64,000 nt of DNA from an uncultured Selenomonadaceae bacterium (lineage in GTDB: Bacteria; Bacillota; Negativicutes; Selenomonadales; Selenomonadaceae), in the NCBI GenBank assembly GCA_905233135.1, contig CAJOCQ010000001.1, positions 186,001 through 250,000 on the forward strand, read 5' to 3'. Under the pieces are notes generated by a model. That model was not told where the DNA came from. It was given only the letters and a program-made list of their open reading frames with translations, and did no database searches. A program made the position numbers and the translations under genes. Below, piece by piece: positions 43,164 through 48,541 of this stretch; within the stretch, counting starts at the first letter, position 1; each line of letters begins with the position of its first letter.

Positions 43164-43190
43164 TTTGCCAAACAGAAAGGAGAAATGGAA

Positions 43191-45899
43191 ATGAGCAGTT
43201 GGGAACAGAGCAAACAGGATTTTATTGACAAACTCTCGAACGCCGACAGGACTTTCAGCGAAATTTTTCAAGTCGACAAAGAAGGGCTTGTAGTGCAGGG
43301 CGAAGAACGCGCCGAACTCGAAAAACTGCAAGCCGCAAACAAAGTTGTTTTGAAAAAGTTGCAAAGCCGCGAATTTACAGTTGCGATTGTAGGATTGGAA
43401 AAAGCCGGCAAAAGTACTTTGGGCAATGCTTTAATTAAGGCAATGGTTTTGCCCGAATATTCCGAGCGTTGCACTTACACTACAACCGAAATTCGCAGCG
43501 GCGATACTGACGTTGCAGAAGTTTATTTTTACAGCCGCGAAGAGTTCAATAAAAATTTTAAGCGTATGTTAAACGACGTGAAATACCCCGACACGGCAGA
43601 TTTTTTCACAATGACGCTTGACGCCTTCAAAAATTATTGGCAGGCAGTCGAAACTGACCCCGAACGCCAAAATATTTTTATGGTTCACAACGGCACTACC
43701 GCCGAAGATATTAAAGCTATCCTCGAAGGCAAACAAAAACTTTTGCCGCTTTTGGGACACGCTACAATGACGTTCGGCGCGGAATATTGGACGGGCGGCG
43801 ACGAATTTAACGAATTTAAAACTTATATAACGGGGATGAGCGGCAAAAATCCCGACGGCTCCGTTATTCGGCAACCGCACCCTTACGCCGTTAAAAGTGT
43901 AACCATTCGTTCAACCCAACTTGCAGAAATGAGCCACCTTGTTTTATACGACGTGCCCGGCTTCGATTCTCCCACAGATTTACACAAAAGACAAACTGAA
44001 GAAATGCTTAAATCTGCCGACGCAATTATTTTGGTTACGAATGTTGGCGACAGACCGAATTTGACGGGGACGCAGCTTGATATGTTGCGCAAAGGACAAG
44101 ACGCCGACGGTATTAAACTCAGTGCAAAGGCGTTTGTTTTCGGAAATAAAATTGACCGCGCCGCCGACGCGCAAACTGCCAAAAATAATTTCGCCGCGCT
44201 GAAAAATGAATCTGTCAACAAATATCAAATTGCGCTTGATAATCACGTTATCGGCGGTTCTGCGCGCGCCTTTTTGGAAACGCAGGGATTAATGTCGGGC
44301 AACGTTGCAAGCCGCGTTATTGACGAATGGCAGCTCCCTGACGGCGACGGCGTTGCAGTTCTTCATAAAAAAATGCAGAATTATTACGATAACGCCCGCT
44401 TTGAAGTTATCAAACGCCGCGCAGAATCTACGCTTACAAAAACGCAGGAAGTTTTGAAAAATTTGCTTGAACGCTACGACAGCGGCGAATTAAATTATAC
44501 TGACGTAAGCGCAGAAATTTTAATGGATATTCAGGCGAAATTGCCGCGCTTTATCCAAGAATCTAACAGAATTACAAAAATTCATACGGGCGAAATTATA
44601 AAATCTGCGCCGTTTACCAACGCCCTTAAAGCCGAAATTGAAAATATTTACCCGCTGTCTGACGCCGAATACACGCAGAATTTAATTCAAGATATTGAGT
44701 ACAGCTTGGCGATTGACCCCGACAGCATTTACCCTGCAACAACCATTAACGGCAATGTACGCGATAAGCTCGGCAAAAAATTTGTTGAAAACGTTGTAAC
44801 CTCCGCCGCCAAATTGACTATCGAAAAGCAAAACGATTTAAATATTGCGCTCGTTGAATCTTTCCTTAAAATTATGGGAATGGAAGAAACCACGCCGCAT
44901 AAAGCCGCGCTTGAACAATCTGTCAACAAACTTTTTGAAAATATGCTGATTAAGGACGGCTCGGATTGCAATTTTAATTCTTTGGTTGAAAGATTTGTTA
45001 CAACGCTGATTCAAACTTTAATTTCAACACCATTTGCAGAAGACGAACGCCTCAACAAAGTTAAAGCAACTTTTGCCGAATTGGTTTCTCTCGCCGTTTA
45101 TTACAATATGCCGATGACTGATTTGCAAAATGTCAATCGCGCAGGAGTCAATTTCTTTTCAAAAATTTTGGTACACGAAACACTCGACGCCGCGCCCGAA
45201 GTTTCATCCAAGCCTACAAATCCAAAAACTGCCAAAGACAATGAAAACTTTTTGCGAGGAATTTTTGAAGATAATATTGACGCCGTGCAAATGGATATTA
45301 ATTCTTTGCCCTTTGCAAAATGGGCGAAAATTGTTGCAGACGCCGAAATTAATTTAGTTGACGTGCAAGTTGACGCGCGGATTAAAGGCAAAGACAAACT
45401 CGGCAACAAGTTGGAAAATCTTTTCTACGATGACAGCTGGAAAACTTTTCCCGCCGCAAAACGTGTACAGGCTATTGAAAGTCTCGTCAACGTTTACGCC
45501 CGCCCAATTTCAACTTCGCCCGCCGATACTTCGAGCGTTAATCTTGAAGGCTTGCACGAAATGGCGCGTAAAGTTAAACGTATGCAAAGCAAAGAAGATA
45601 TGGTTGCAACGCTTGACGCCGATATTGAAATTTTGCGCGATATTACGGCAAAGGCGGTTATTAATGCTATTGGGCTTGAACGCGCTTTTATTTCCGTCGT
45701 TACAAAAAATGTTGAGTTAATCCGTGAACATTTACAGGCGGGCGAAGGTGCAAAAGAGTTCCGCGCGTGGATTCGCAATAACGCAACTAATTTAATGCCT
45801 TCGCACTTTGAACACATTATCGAAGAACGCGCTATTAATGAAAACAGAAAAGCTATCGTAAACGCAATTAAAGTTATGCAGAATAAATTAGATTTCTAA
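43191..45899 (+). CDS. Large dynamin-like GTPase
   Basis: 902 aa from ATG 43191 (AAGGAG at 8 bases; ATG 43185 would be too close). Dynamin-family G domain: P-loop GLEKAGKST near 68, threonine switch YTTTE, G3 DVPGFDS near 254, G4 FGNKID near 317. The remaining 550 residues are helical stalk-like sequence without an obvious membrane segment. Bacterial dynamins remodel membranes or act in phage or stress response; usually two occur in tandem, but this one stands alone. Probable control by the inverted repeat upstream. Confidence 0.8.
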   Translation: MSSWEQSKQDFIDKLSNADRTFSEIFQVDKEGLVVQGEERAELEKLQAANKVVLKKLQSREFTVAIVGLEKAGKSTLGNALIKAMVLPEYSERCTYTTTEIRSGDTDVAEVYFYSREEFNKNFKRMLNDVKYPDTADFFTMTLDAFKNYWQAVETDPERQNIFMVHNGTTAEDIKAILEGKQKLLPLLGHATMTFGAEYWTGGDEFNEFKTYITGMSGKNPDGSVIRQPHPYAVKSVTIRSTQLAEMSHLVLYDVPGFDSPTDLHKRQTEEMLKSADAIILVTNVGDRPNLTGTQLDMLRKGQDADGIKLSAKAFVFGNKIDRAADAQTAKNNFAALKNESVNKYQIALDNHVIGGSARAFLETQGLMSGNVASRVIDEWQLPDGDGVAVLHKKMQNYYDNARFEVIKRRAESTLTKTQEVLKNLLERYDSGELNYTDVSAEILMDIQAKLPRFIQESNRITKIHTGEIIKSAPFTNALKAEIENIYPLSDAEYTQNLIQDIEYSLAIDPDSIYPATTINGNVRDKLGKKFVENVVTSAAKLTIEKQNDLNIALVESFLKIMGMEETTPHKAALEQSVNKLFENMLIKDGSDCNFNSLVERFVTTLIQTLISTPFAEDERLNKVKATFAELVSLAVYYNMPMTDLQNVNRAGVNFFSKILVHETLDAAPEVSSKPTNPKTAKDNENFLRGIFEDNIDAVQMDINSLPFAKWAKIVADAEINLVDVQVDARIKGKDKLGNKLENLFYDDSWKTFPAAKRVQAIESLVNVYARPISTSPADTSSVNLEGLHEMARKVKRMQSKEDMVATLDADIEILRDITAKAVINAIGLERAFISVVTKNVELIREHLQAGEGAKEFRAWIRNNATNLMPSHFEHIIEERAINENRKAIVNAIKVMQNKLDF

Positions 45900-45945: not shown

Positions 45946-45980
45946 AACACCTTCAGAAAAAATTTTGGAGGTGTTTTTTT
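45946..45980 (+). terminator. Terminator after the dynamin-like gene
   Basis: Stem AACACCT / AGGTGTT (45946-45952 with 45969-45975) and a T7 run. Confidence 0.8.
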
Positions 45981-46053: not shown

Positions 46054-47007
46054 ATGTTAAAGAAAACTCGTGACCAATATTTTAATGAGGCGGCTTTTCC
46101 CGTGATGTTGCAATTTGAACTTACCGGCGCGTGTAATTTGAAATGCAAACAATGTTACAACGATTCAGGCGAAAAAATAACTTCAATGACACCCGAACAT
46201 TGGAAAAATTTTTCAAAAAAAGTTGCGAACGATTTATTCAGCGTAACATTAAGCGGCGGAGAACCGTTACTGTTGGGCGAACAATTATTTTCTTTGATGG
46301 ACATTTTTCAAGCGGGCAAAACGTGGATTAACTTAATTTCTAACGGATTTTTCATAGACAGAGAAAAAGCCAAACGATTGTCAAAATATGATCTCGGTTG
46401 GGTAGAAATATCTATAGATTCTCCCTTCGAAGATTATCATGATTATTTGCGCGGTGTACAGGGAAGTTGGCGAAAAGCAGTTTTGGCGGCGTCGTATCTT
46501 GCAAGCTATAATGTTCCTGTATTTATAGGCACTTGTGTTACTCCAAAAACTTTGCCCGATATTGAGGCAATGGTAAAGTTGGCTCAAGAAATTGGCGTAA
46601 AAGGTTTAACCCTTACAAAAATTTTCATTTCCGGCAGAGCATACAGCAACGCAGAAGAGTTGATACTTTCCGAAGACGATACAGAAAAATTTATAGCTGA
46701 AGCAATGCAACTCAAAAAAAATACAAAAGATATTGTCATTAATTTTACAACTCAAACTATTCAAGACGCAATTAAAGACGATACCGGAATAACAAATTAC
46801 CAAGTGCCGATAATCAGACCGGACGCCAAAATGCGTTTATCCTGTTTTGAACCAATTATAGTTGGAGATGTGCTGAGCGAAGATATTCAAACTCTCTGGC
46901 AAAGATATAAGCAGGTACGCGCAGCAGTTAAAAATTCTCCTGAAAAAATTACCGCTGCAGGCAGAAATTATGTCGATAAGGAAATAAGCTATGTTAAAGT
47001 ACTATGA
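46054..47007 (+). CDS. Radical SAM peptide-modifying enzyme (PqqE/AlbA-like)
   Basis: 317 aa. Radical SAM core with cluster motif CNLKCKQC (residues 27-34), SGGEPLLL near 70 (SAM-binding GGE), LISNGFFI near 95 and EISIDSP near 116. The C-terminus has IIRPDAKMRLSCFEPIIVGDV near 250, the start of a SPASM-like extension, but only a single cysteine there, so full auxiliary clusters look absent. A PqqD-like gene overlaps its end and a small peptide gene follows, the standard layout of a RiPP pathway. Confidence 0.88.
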   Translation: MLKKTRDQYFNEAAFPVMLQFELTGACNLKCKQCYNDSGEKITSMTPEHWKNFSKKVANDLFSVTLSGGEPLLLGEQLFSLMDIFQAGKTWINLISNGFFIDREKAKRLSKYDLGWVEISIDSPFEDYHDYLRGVQGSWRKAVLAASYLASYNVPVFIGTCVTPKTLPDIEAMVKLAQEIGVKGLTLTKIFISGRAYSNAEELILSEDDTEKFIAEAMQLKKNTKDIVINFTTQTIQDAIKDDTGITNYQVPIIRPDAKMRLSCFEPIIVGDVLSEDIQTLWQRYKQVRAAVKNSPEKITAAGRNYVDKEISYVKVL

Positions 47008-47287
47008 ACTTATTAAAGAATCAAAGCCTAAAAACAAGGCGAAAAAAATAAAGTTTGACCAATCCCAACATATTTATTTTGCCTCTTGTCATAATTATGC
47101 GGGAGTGGAAATTTTGGGCGAAGCCTCCGGCTTACTTTTGACGTTGTCCGACGGCGAAAAAACTTTGGCTGATATTGCAAAGCAGTTATCTTTAAAATTT
47201 AATGTTGCCGAGTCTGATATTGCAGAGATGATTGTTATAGAAGTGCGAAATTTACAGCGAAAACATCTTCTTTTCTTAGAAATTTAA
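46991..47287 (+). CDS. PqqD-like RiPP recognition protein
   Basis: 98 aa. Winged-helix PqqD fold pattern: LLLTLSDGEKTLADIAKQLSLKFN near residue 48, then VIEVRNLQRKHLLFLE. In RiPP systems PqqD domains bind the precursor leader and present it to the radical SAM enzyme. It overlaps the enzyme gene by 17 bases, so both are made together. Confidence 0.82.
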   Translation: MLKYYELIKESKPKNKAKKIKFDQSQHIYFASCHNYAGVEILGEASGLLLTLSDGEKTLADIAKQLSLKFNVAESDIAEMIVIEVRNLQRKHLLFLEI

Positions 47288-47360
47288 AAAGGATATAGCC
47301 AAAAATCCCGAGCTAAAAAAATTTTTTAATGTTGAATGCCCTGATAAGGAGAGTTAAAAA

Positions 47361-47519
47361 ATGGAAAATAAAAAAGTTGACACCAACAATATTTTTGAAT
47401 CGGTTGTTTTAGAATCTGCCGATAAAGCTGAAGCTAATGCCGTTTTAATTGTTAATTTAGTTATTGCGGTTAGACCCGTTACTGACAGCGATTTAAAATG
47501 CGCGGGGCTTAACCAATAA
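47361..47519 (+). CDS. Candidate RiPP precursor peptide
   Basis: 52-codon gene with AAGGAGAG 7-8 bases before ATG 47361. Product opens MENKKVDTNNIFESVVLES, continues with AEANAVLIVNLVIAVRPV and ends TDSDLKCAGLNQ, with a single Cys six residues from the end. Size, position directly after radical SAM and PqqD genes, and a terminator behind it support a precursor. Leader and core cannot be split with certainty; an acidic/amide leader up to about 25 and a hydrophobic core are plausible. No family recognised. Confidence 0.6.
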   Translation: MENKKVDTNNIFESVVLESADKAEANAVLIVNLVIAVRPVTDSDLKCAGLNQ

Positions 47520-47577: not shown

Positions 47578-47605
47578 AAGCCGCCAATCTCTGACGGCTT
47601 TTTTT
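47578..47605 (+). terminator. Terminator of the radical SAM cassette
   Basis: Stem AAGCCG / CGGCTT (47578-47583 with 47595-47600) and a T7 run, closing the three-gene unit. Confidence 0.75.
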
Positions 47606-47620
47606 AGTGCCAAAAAATTT

Positions 47621-48541
47621 TCAGTGCCCTTTAGTTTTAAATCTGCCGCCGACAATGTCATAAACAGAATTTATTGTAACAAAGGCGTTTTCGTCCATTG
47701 ACAAAACAATTTCTTTAACCTTCGTAACTTCGAGGCGGTTTACCACGCAATATAAAATTTCTTTCGGCAGTTTTGTATAGCCGCCTTGCCCGTGCAAAAT
47801 CGTAACACCGCGCCCTAATTGCCTGTTCAATTCGTCCGTAACTTCGATTGGATCTTTTGTAACAATCATAACCGCGTACGTTTCATCAAATCCCTTTGTA
47901 ACAACGTCAATCATTTTCGCAATTACAAAATATGCAACAAGCGAATACATTGCTTTATCCCAACCGAATAAAAGTCCCGCGCCGCTCAAAATAAAAAGAT
48001 TTATAAACATAACAACTTCGCCGACTGAAAAGGGCGAATGTTTATCGGCGATAATTGCAACAATTTCTGTACCGTCCAAAGAGCCGCCCGCGCGCATAAT
48101 TATTCCAACGCCGATACCGTCAACAATCCCGCCGAAAATTGCCGCCAAAAACGGGTCATTGGTAACTTTCGGAAAAGTTGCCGCGTATTCGGAGCAAAGG
48201 CTCAACATTATTACCGCAATAACCGTCGAAATTGCGAAATTTTTTCCAATGTGTTTATAGCCGATATACAAAAACGGAAGGTTCAGCACCACCAAAAAAA
48301 CGCCGAAAGGTACGCCGTCAACCATAAAATGTCCCATAATCGACAAGCCGACAACGCCGCCGTCAATAACTTGATTCGGTATCAGAAAAAGTTCCAGCCC
48401 CATCGACGCAATAGCCGCGCCAATAAAAAGCTGTAACCATTGTAAAATATAATTTCTTAATTTGCGCCCGCGTTTCATTATAATTGCGTTTTTGTTAATT
48501 TCCTCAACTTTTGAATTTCCAATTTGCTGTTCCGTTTCCAA
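47621..48541 (-). CDS. YitT-family membrane protein (DUF161/DUF2179)
   Basis: 306 aa. Five to six membrane segments in residues 30-215 (LFIGAAIASMGLELFLIPNQVIDGG, GVGIIMRAGGSLDGTEIVA) followed by the soluble DUF2179 domain with RGVTILHGQGGYTKLPKEIL near 243. Family of unknown function common in Firmicutes. TTG 48541 has GGAGGG upstream. A tiny hydrophobic frame precedes it. Confidence 0.9.
   Translation of the reverse strand: METEQQIGNSKVEEINKNAIIMKRGRKLRNYILQWLQLFIGAAIASMGLELFLIPNQVIDGGVVGLSIMGHFMVDGVPFGVFLVVLNLPFLYIGYKHIGKNFAISTVIAVIMLSLCSEYAATFPKVTNDPFLAAIFGGIVDGIGVGIIMRAGGSLDGTEIVAIIADKHSPFSVGEVVMFINLFILSGAGLLFGWDKAMYSLVAYFVIAKMIDVVTKGFDETYAVMIVTKDPIEVTDELNRQLGRGVTILHGQGGYTKLPKEILYCVVNRLEVTKVKEIVLSMDENAFVTINSVYDIVGGRFKTKGH

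What the first reader, a model, noticed from the sequence alone, without database searches (positions are those of the whole stretch)
46054..47519. Compact radical SAM / PqqD / small peptide cassette, possible new RiPP pathway
Seen: a radical SAM enzyme with CNLKCKQC, an overlapping PqqD-like gene and a 52-codon gene with its own ribosome site, all bounded by terminators at 45946 and 47578. Known: PqqD domains present precursor peptides to radical SAM enzymes. Inference: the peptide ending TDSDLKCAGLNQ is the substrate. It does not match any precursor family I know, the enzyme lacks most SPASM cysteines, and there is no exporter or protease nearby, so the product may act inside the cell or borrow other machinery.
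Basis: partly seen in the sequence, partly recalled or inferred. Interest (0 to 1): 0.82.

Follow-up and report, generated by a model that had tools for sequence, protein, structure and literature searches.

The report
Rare radical-SAM peptide-modifying gene cassette
A small set of genes in a gut (probably rumen) bacterium very probably makes a chemically modified peptide of an undescribed family, and in one relative the same set sits inside an antiviral defence gene cluster.

Summary
In detail: a 317-aa radical SAM enzyme (46054-47007), a 98-aa PqqD-like protein overlapping it by 17 nt, and a 52-aa peptide gene (47361-47519) with its own ribosome site. Two relatives carry the same cassette: G058 (79/76/65% identity) and G013 (enzyme cut by the contig end; PqqD 61%, peptide 47%). 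Corrections: the cassette has a fourth gene (57 aa), of which the window keeps a stub; the terminator at 47578 scores only on the minus strand; the cassette looks inserted (absent in 3 congeners that have the flanking genes). Most likely it is a RiPP maturation cassette. The enzyme has the radical SAM motif plus one invariant cysteine (C264); the peptides share no Cys, Trp or Tyr. By analogy this fits a peptide epimerase best, but the chemistry is inferred. In G058 the cassette sits in the middle of a viperin - kinase/STAND-like locus where three other loci carry paired GTPases; a defence role is suggested, not shown.

The parts
46054..47007 (+). Radical SAM enzyme, 317 aa, CX3CX2C at C27/C31/C34, degenerate C-terminal region with one Cys (C264)
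   Evidence: 79% identical copy in G058 (L026:3995-4945)
46991..47287 (+). PqqD-like discrete recognition protein, 98 aa; 17-nt overlap with the enzyme gene
   Evidence: hhalign 96.9% to the PqqDs of the wider family; Foldseek first hit PqqD 3g2b, prob 1.00 but E 0.11
47280..47354 (+). Stub of a fourth small gene (57 aa in G058, 55 or 63 aa in G013 depending on the start); only the last ~25 codons remain, with an in-frame TAG at 47277-47279 and no usual start codon
47361..47519 (+). Putative precursor peptide, 52 aa: conserved N[IV]F[ED]SVV[LI][ED]S near the start, a Val/Ile/Leu-rich stretch, conserved end P-x-x-D-x-D-x4-G-L-N-[QS]
45946..45975 (+). Intrinsic-terminator-like site after the upstream dynamin-like gene, left boundary
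47578..47600 (-). Terminator-like site of the converging yitT-like gene, right boundary

Best explanation
The locus is a minimal, probably horizontally acquired RiPP maturation cassette. The PqqD-like protein binds the conserved N-terminal part of the 52-aa peptide and presents it to the radical SAM enzyme. The enzyme makes a 5'-deoxyadenosyl radical at its single [4Fe-4S] cluster and abstracts a hydrogen from the Val/Ile/Leu-rich or the C-terminal part of the peptide. Because the enzyme keeps no set of auxiliary-cluster ligands but one invariant Cys (C264), and the peptides share no Cys, Trp or Tyr, the likeliest chemistry is epimerisation to D-residues with C264 as hydrogen donor (about 0.3 for this chemistry alone; the stated confidence is for the RiPP cassette as such). 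The 57-aa protein is an accessory that the window has lost. No dedicated exporter or leader protease seems to belong to the unit. Shown: genes, conservation, co-occurrence, cysteine pattern, absence at the same site in congeners. Inferred: binding, modification, chemistry, fate of the product.
For: Same order rSAM-PqqD-small gene-peptide in G058 and G013; peptide found in 3 of 189 family genomes at E <= 3.1e-14, the same 3 that carry the close PqqD; purifying selection between window and G058 on enzyme (dN 0.147, dS 1.42) and peptide (dN 0.24, dS saturated) (Nei-Gojobori only); PqqD profile and fold; the wider enzyme family has a PqqD-like ORF and Y-x-P peptides in 21 of 21 loci (in L009 the PqqD match is weak, E 0.061); C264 present in 23 of 23 family enzymes aligned and in the G013 fragment, invariant in the 20 rows; PMC8326336 passages: proteusin epimerases have only the radical SAM cluster plus a C-terminal RRE and one strictly conserved Cys proposed to quench the radical; Val and Ile are epimerised in epipeptide and in proteusins such as PlpA.
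Against: No biochemical data. Only three cassettes, one cut by a contig end, one (the window) with a broken accessory gene. PqqD is below the Pfam and NCBIfam cut-offs and no Foldseek hit reaches E 0.001. Peptide window-G013 gives a weaker ratio (dN 0.50, dS 1.20); PqqD dS could not be computed. C264 lies near the place of a C-terminal Cys of SkfB, offset by one in the alignment, so it may be a structural leftover; many wider-family enzymes have further, non-invariant Cys. The match to the epimerase YydG covers only the radical SAM core and is weaker than that to SkfB; the paper says that YydG (EpeE) has two clusters; no comparison with proteusin epimerase sequences was made. The enzyme model (pLDDT 49.5) was too poor to place C264. 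The window peptide has one Cys, not conserved.
Confidence: 0.72

Rival explanations
1. The enzyme works on the conserved C-terminal tail (P-x-x-D-x-D-x4-GLN[QS]): a cross-link, decarboxylation or excision yields a small intracellular molecule, as in mycofactocin or PQQ.
For: The C-terminus is among the best conserved parts; no exporter seen beside the unit; peptide + discrete PqqD + rSAM is the layout of PQQ (PMC8326336 passages); the mycofactocin maturase model scores 82 bits on the window and 92.5 on the G058 enzyme.
Against: Those scores are far below the cut-offs (265 for mycofactocin, 381 for PqqE); no Tyr in the three peptides, while both known cofactors use one; no auxiliary cluster ligands; a rare inserted cassette is an odd place for a cofactor.
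Confidence: 0.15
2. The cassette is a module of anti-phage defence: the modified peptide is an intracellular effector, signal or regulator used with viperin and the kinase/STAND-like protein. Compatible with the RiPP reading.
For: In G058 it lies between a viperin (259.5 bits, cut-off 180) and a Ser/Thr kinase - STAND-like - TPR protein. The 4 genomes of 66 congeners with that kinase gene at E <= 1e-60 all have a viperin or a viperin remnant upstream; in G099, G072 and G105 the middle holds two GTPases instead of the cassette. G013's neighbour gene has homologues about 3 kb from another viperin (L121) and beside a wider-family cassette (L009).
Against: One cassette of three. No viperin was found in the window genome or G013 at E <= 1e-20, both drafts about 86% complete; the window cassette stands alone. 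G072 and G105 are nearly the same locus, so the four are not independent. The STAND part is below Pfam cut-offs. Chance insertion into a defence island is possible.
Confidence: 0.2
3. The 57-aa protein is the true precursor and the 52-aa peptide has another role such as immunity or a second substrate.
For: It is conserved in G058 and G013 (46% identity) and survives as an orphan in G073.
Against: The window has lost its first half while enzyme, PqqD and 52-aa peptide keep intact, conserved frames.
Confidence: 0.1
4. In the window the cassette is decaying and inactive after loss of the fourth gene.
For: Truncated fourth gene without start codon. The stub itself still looks conserved (dN 0.24, dS 2.67), so the loss is recent and the selection seen on the other genes may predate it.
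Against: The three other frames are intact.
Confidence: 0.15

Closest known systems
Proteusin-type radical SAM peptide epimerases (PoyD, OspD)
   Same: Radical SAM cluster only, an RRE, one strictly conserved Cys, Val/Ile among the targets (PMC8326336 passages)
   Different: RRE is a separate PqqD-like protein; no nitrile-hydratase-type or Nif11 leader by Pfam; sequence kinship to these enzymes was not tested
PQQ and mycofactocin peptide + PqqD-like + rSAM systems
   Same: Peptide, recognition protein and rSAM in one small unit (for mycofactocin recalled)
   Different: No Tyr in the peptide, no auxiliary cluster ligands, scores far below the family cut-offs
GeoRSP rSAM (TIGR04303), best NCBIfam hit
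   Same: Similarity over most of the enzyme, 119.2 bits
   Different: Cut-off 400 not reached; no member
Selenomonadaceae rSAM + PqqD + Y-x-P multi-peptide loci (L005-L025, found here)
   Same: 36-41% identical enzyme, PqqD-like partner, same single invariant Cys
   Different: ~350-aa enzyme, one to five short ORFs with Y-x(1-3)-P near the start, a CxxCGxCC ORF (YkgJ-like, label recalled) in 18 of 21 loci; the window peptide has no such motif
SkfB, best solved structure by sequence
   Same: Radical SAM core (E 2.2e-32)
   Different: Makes a thioether on a substrate Cys and carries an auxiliary cluster (recalled); no conserved Cys in the peptides here

Membership tests
RRE-dependent radical SAM RiPP pathway | Radical SAM enzyme with CX3CX2C | tested here: met
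RRE-dependent radical SAM RiPP pathway | PqqD-like recognition protein beside it | tested here: met
   Below Pfam and NCBIfam cut-offs, but hhalign 96.9% to family PqqDs, one of which passes Pfam (L020), and Foldseek first hit 3g2b, prob 1.00, E 0.11. The HHpred criterion of RRE-Finder was not run
RRE-dependent radical SAM RiPP pathway | Conserved adjacent precursor peptide | tested here: met
   3 of 3 cassettes
RRE-dependent radical SAM RiPP pathway | Peptide is modified by the enzyme | not testable with these tools
   needs biochemistry
SPASM-domain maturase | Auxiliary Fe-S cluster cysteines | tested here: not met
   one Cys only in the C-terminal region of the window enzyme
Sactipeptide / ranthipeptide | Conserved Cys in the core | tested here: not met
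   Cys 1, 0, 0 in the three peptides
Cyclophane / streptide type | Conserved aromatic residue in the core | tested here: not met
   no Trp or Tyr in the three peptides; the only shared Phe is in the N-terminal motif
Peptide epimerase (proteusin type) | No auxiliary cluster and one invariant Cys | tested here: met
   23 of 23 aligned family enzymes have C264 and no other invariant Cys outside the motif
Peptide epimerase (proteusin type) | That Cys donates hydrogen in the active site | tested here: inconclusive
   model too poor
Peptide epimerase (proteusin type) | Nitrile-hydratase-like leader on the precursor | tested here: not met
   no Pfam match at E <= 1 for the window and G058 peptides
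Peptide epimerase (proteusin type) | Sequence kinship to PoyD-type enzymes | not tested
   no such sequences were compared
Mycofactocin (MftC) | TIGR03962 score over cut-off | tested here: not met
   82 of 265 bits
GeoRSP | TIGR04303 score over cut-off | tested here: not met
   119.2 of 400 bits
Viperin | NF038283 score over cut-off | tested here: not met
   58.6 of 180 bits; the PADLOC pVip match of 64.9 bits I read as the shared radical SAM core

The most novel reading that the evidence does not exclude
An undescribed RiPP family whose modified, possibly D-amino-acid-containing peptide acts inside the cell as an interchangeable module of viperin - kinase/STAND-like anti-phage loci, replacing a pair of GTPases, and has been carried out of that setting into a stand-alone site in the window genome.
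Probability: 0.12. Interest if true: 0.85.

Novelty: new variant of a known kind. Interest (0 to 1): 0.55.

Why it matters
It gives a very small, testable peptide-modifying system with a precursor that no searched family covers, and a wider related family (21 more loci in one bacterial family) for comparison. If the single-cysteine reading is right it is a compact epimerase with a separable recognition protein. If the viperin link is functional, it would tie a ribosomal peptide product to intracellular antiviral defence.

Tried and rejected
Viral contigs gave no relative of enzyme, peptide or PqqD; phages none of the enzyme at E <= 1e-10; plasmids none of the PqqD and one enzyme match, 28% identical, beside ThiF and another rSAM. 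PqqD profile: 7 of 380 class genomes at E <= 1e-6, of which 3 are the real cassettes and 4 are weak hits (E 4.9e-8 to 4.8e-7) to wider-family PqqDs (G068 read, the others by their place beside L011, L014, L019); 1 (own) of 398 phylum genomes. Peptide search: 38 of 189 genomes at E <= 1; beyond the three, the best (E 0.0057) was read and is a repeat protein, the other 34 (E 0.037 and above) were not read. Structure prediction of the enzyme failed (pLDDT 49.5); that of PqqD is only fair (65.2).

Papers. Full-text searches for radical SAM + PqqD + precursor peptide + Selenomonas, and radical SAM + RiPP + Negativicutes, found 0 papers; viperin + RiPP + PqqD found 1, an iron-sulfur expression study by its listing; GeoRSP found one unrelated paper. 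Four broader searches were seen as listings only. Passages were read in PMC8326336, PMC7470986 and PMC5067487, no whole paper. The likeness of the Y-x-P motif to lasso leaders is recalled; the term YxxP does not occur in PMC7470986 or PMC5067487. The library is open-access only, so absence there is weak.

Other. The Y-x-P peptide count (62 pattern hits, 11 with Cys, 5 with Trp, 32 with Tyr after the motif) includes some ORFs that are not operon peptides and does not exclude aromatic chemistry in the wider family. The tree has very long outgroup branches; only the short/long split is used. A frameshifted PqqD and a translated stub were considered for 47280-47354: the stub frame has a TAG directly before it and no usual start.

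Full report
What is there. Between a dynamin-like GTPase gene (43185-45899) and a converging yitT-like gene (47621-48541; both names by eye) lie three plus-strand genes: a radical SAM enzyme of 317 aa, a 98-aa PqqD-like protein overlapping it by 17 nt, and a 52-aa peptide with a clear ribosome site. The same 17-nt overlap follows from the coordinates in G058 and G013. The left terminator is a plus-strand site; the right one scores only on the minus strand.

Relatives. Among 189 Selenomonadaceae genomes, 23 have an enzyme match at E <= 1e-30, the window's own included: G058 at 79% identity and 21 at 36-41%. The peptide profile finds the window, G058 and G013 (E 2.9e-35, 3.8e-33, 3.1e-14); the next hit is E 0.0057 and spurious. 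The PqqD profile finds the same three and no other close copy in 380 class genomes, and only the own copy in a 398-genome phylum sample. G013's contig begins inside the enzyme gene; its fragment is 62% identical. G058's contig is that of a goat-rumen Selenomonadaceae MAG.

The peptide. The three copies share N[IV]F[ED]SVV[LI][ED]S near the start, a hydrophobic stretch, and P-x-x-D-x-D-x4-GLN[QS] at the end. Window against G058 gives dN 0.24 with saturated dS, and for the enzyme dN 0.147, dS 1.42; window against G013 gives a weaker dN 0.50, dS 1.20 for the peptide (Nei-Gojobori; the second method failed). No Pfam or NCBIfam model matches the window and G058 copies, nor NCBIfam the G013 copy, at E <= 1.

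The fourth gene. G058 and G013 have a further gene of 57 and 55-63 aa between PqqD and peptide (46% identical). The window keeps only its last ~25 codons, preceded in frame by TAG and without a usual start. A fourth genome, G073, has the gene alone, next to genes that I take for mobile-element genes without having searched them.

Insertion. Seven congeners with a dynamin gene 64-89% identical were fetched. In G083 and G078 the yitT-like gene is the next gene and no cassette is between; in G091 a second dynamin gene stands between, again no cassette. In G084, G111 and G050 no yitT-like gene was found in the fetched stretch, and the G082 contig ends. The cassette's GC3 is 0.28-0.34 against 0.44 for the dynamin gene; in G058 the cassette's GC does not stand out from its contig.

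The enzyme. Outside the CX3CX2C motif one Cys, C264, is present in all 23 family rows (window, G058 and the 21 wider-family enzymes) and in the G013 fragment. C161 is shared, among these rows, only by the window and G058; many wider-family enzymes have other, non-invariant Cys. No set of auxiliary-cluster Cys remains in the window enzyme. The best sequence match among solved structures is SkfB, then PqqE; the epimerase YydG is matched over the core only. The curated NCBIfam cut-offs of the 25 listed families are all missed.

The recognition protein. It is below the Pfam cut-off, but its profile matches the PqqDs of the wider family at 96.9%, one of which passes Pfam. The first Foldseek hit of its fair model is PqqD 3g2b, probability 1.00 with E 0.11; two lasso-peptide B1 recognition proteins are among the first seven, mixed with unrelated proteins, and no hit reaches E 0.001. 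RRE-Finder's paper (PMC7470986, passages) describes discrete RREs under 100 residues and says that most RREs from classes other than PQQ and a few others are not covered by the Pfam model.

The wider family. All 21 loci with a 36-41% enzyme have a PqqD-like ORF (weak in L009) and at least one short ORF with a Y-x(1-3)-P motif near the start. NCBIfam gives no passing family for the eight such peptides scanned. The window's unit is a divergent branch: window and G058 group apart from the 21 (support 97/93, with long outgroup branches).

Mechanism. PMC8326336 (passages) states that proteusin epimerases carry only the radical SAM cluster plus an RRE, that one strictly conserved Cys is proposed to quench the radical, and that Val and Ile are targets in epipeptide and in proteusins such as PlpA; the epipeptide enzyme has two clusters. 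The window's unit shows the proteusin combination with the RRE as a separate protein, and peptides that share no Cys, Trp or Tyr. I therefore rank epimerisation first, at about 0.3, ahead of a C-terminal cross-link or excision. Binding by PqqD, modification and fate are inferred.

Setting in the relatives. In G058 the order is a gene on the opposite strand (HTH-like by eye), viperin (259.5 bits, cut-off 180), enzyme, PqqD, 57-aa gene, peptide, and a 1442-aa protein with kinase and TPR domains over the Pfam cut-offs and a STAND-like part below them. That kinase gene occurs in 4 of 66 congeners at E <= 1e-60. In G099 the HTH-like, viperin and kinase genes are 49, 63 and 60% identical to those of G058, with another rSAM and two LeoBC-like GTPases between. 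G072 and G105, nearly the same locus, have a viperin remnant, the same two GTPases and the kinase gene; the HTH-like gene is seen in G072, while G105's contig starts too late. So the cassette takes the place of the GTPase pair in a viperin locus. Viperin occurs in 9 of 189 family genomes but was not found in the window genome or G013. This is one locus of three and remains suggestive.

Verdict. A real, conserved, rare RiPP-type cassette with a precursor that no searched family covers: a new variant of a known kind.

Noticed in passing
L125, L137, L136, L058:1685-10011: A viperin locus frame in Selenomonadaceae: divergent HTH-like gene, viperin, variable middle, kinase - STAND-like - TPR protein; the middle is two LeoBC-like GTPases in three loci and the RiPP cassette in one. 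Two loci, nearly the same, have only a viperin remnant.
   Followed up: partly
L005-L025: A wider, apparently uncurated rSAM + PqqD + multi-peptide family with a Y-x-P motif, with a CxxCGxCC ORF in 18 of 21 loci; 21 of 189 family genomes at the threshold used, plus contig-end fragments in G068.
   Followed up: partly
L061:1222-1665, L121:1830-2246, L009:562-1011: Homologous 138-149 aa proteins with a hydrophobic start lie near the G013 cassette, about 3 kb from a viperin and beside a wider-family cassette.
   Followed up: partly
L120:5323-5505: Orphan copy of the 57-aa gene in G073, directly followed by a large ORF that looks like a mobile-element gene (impression, no family search).
   Followed up: partly
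43185-45899: Dynamin-like GTPase (weak LeoBC match, 40 bits) directly upstream of the cassette; G091 has a second one next to yitT.
   Followed up: partly
L103:4115-5188: The 3' end of the yitT-like gene appears twice in G078, about 145 bp apart.
   Followed up: no
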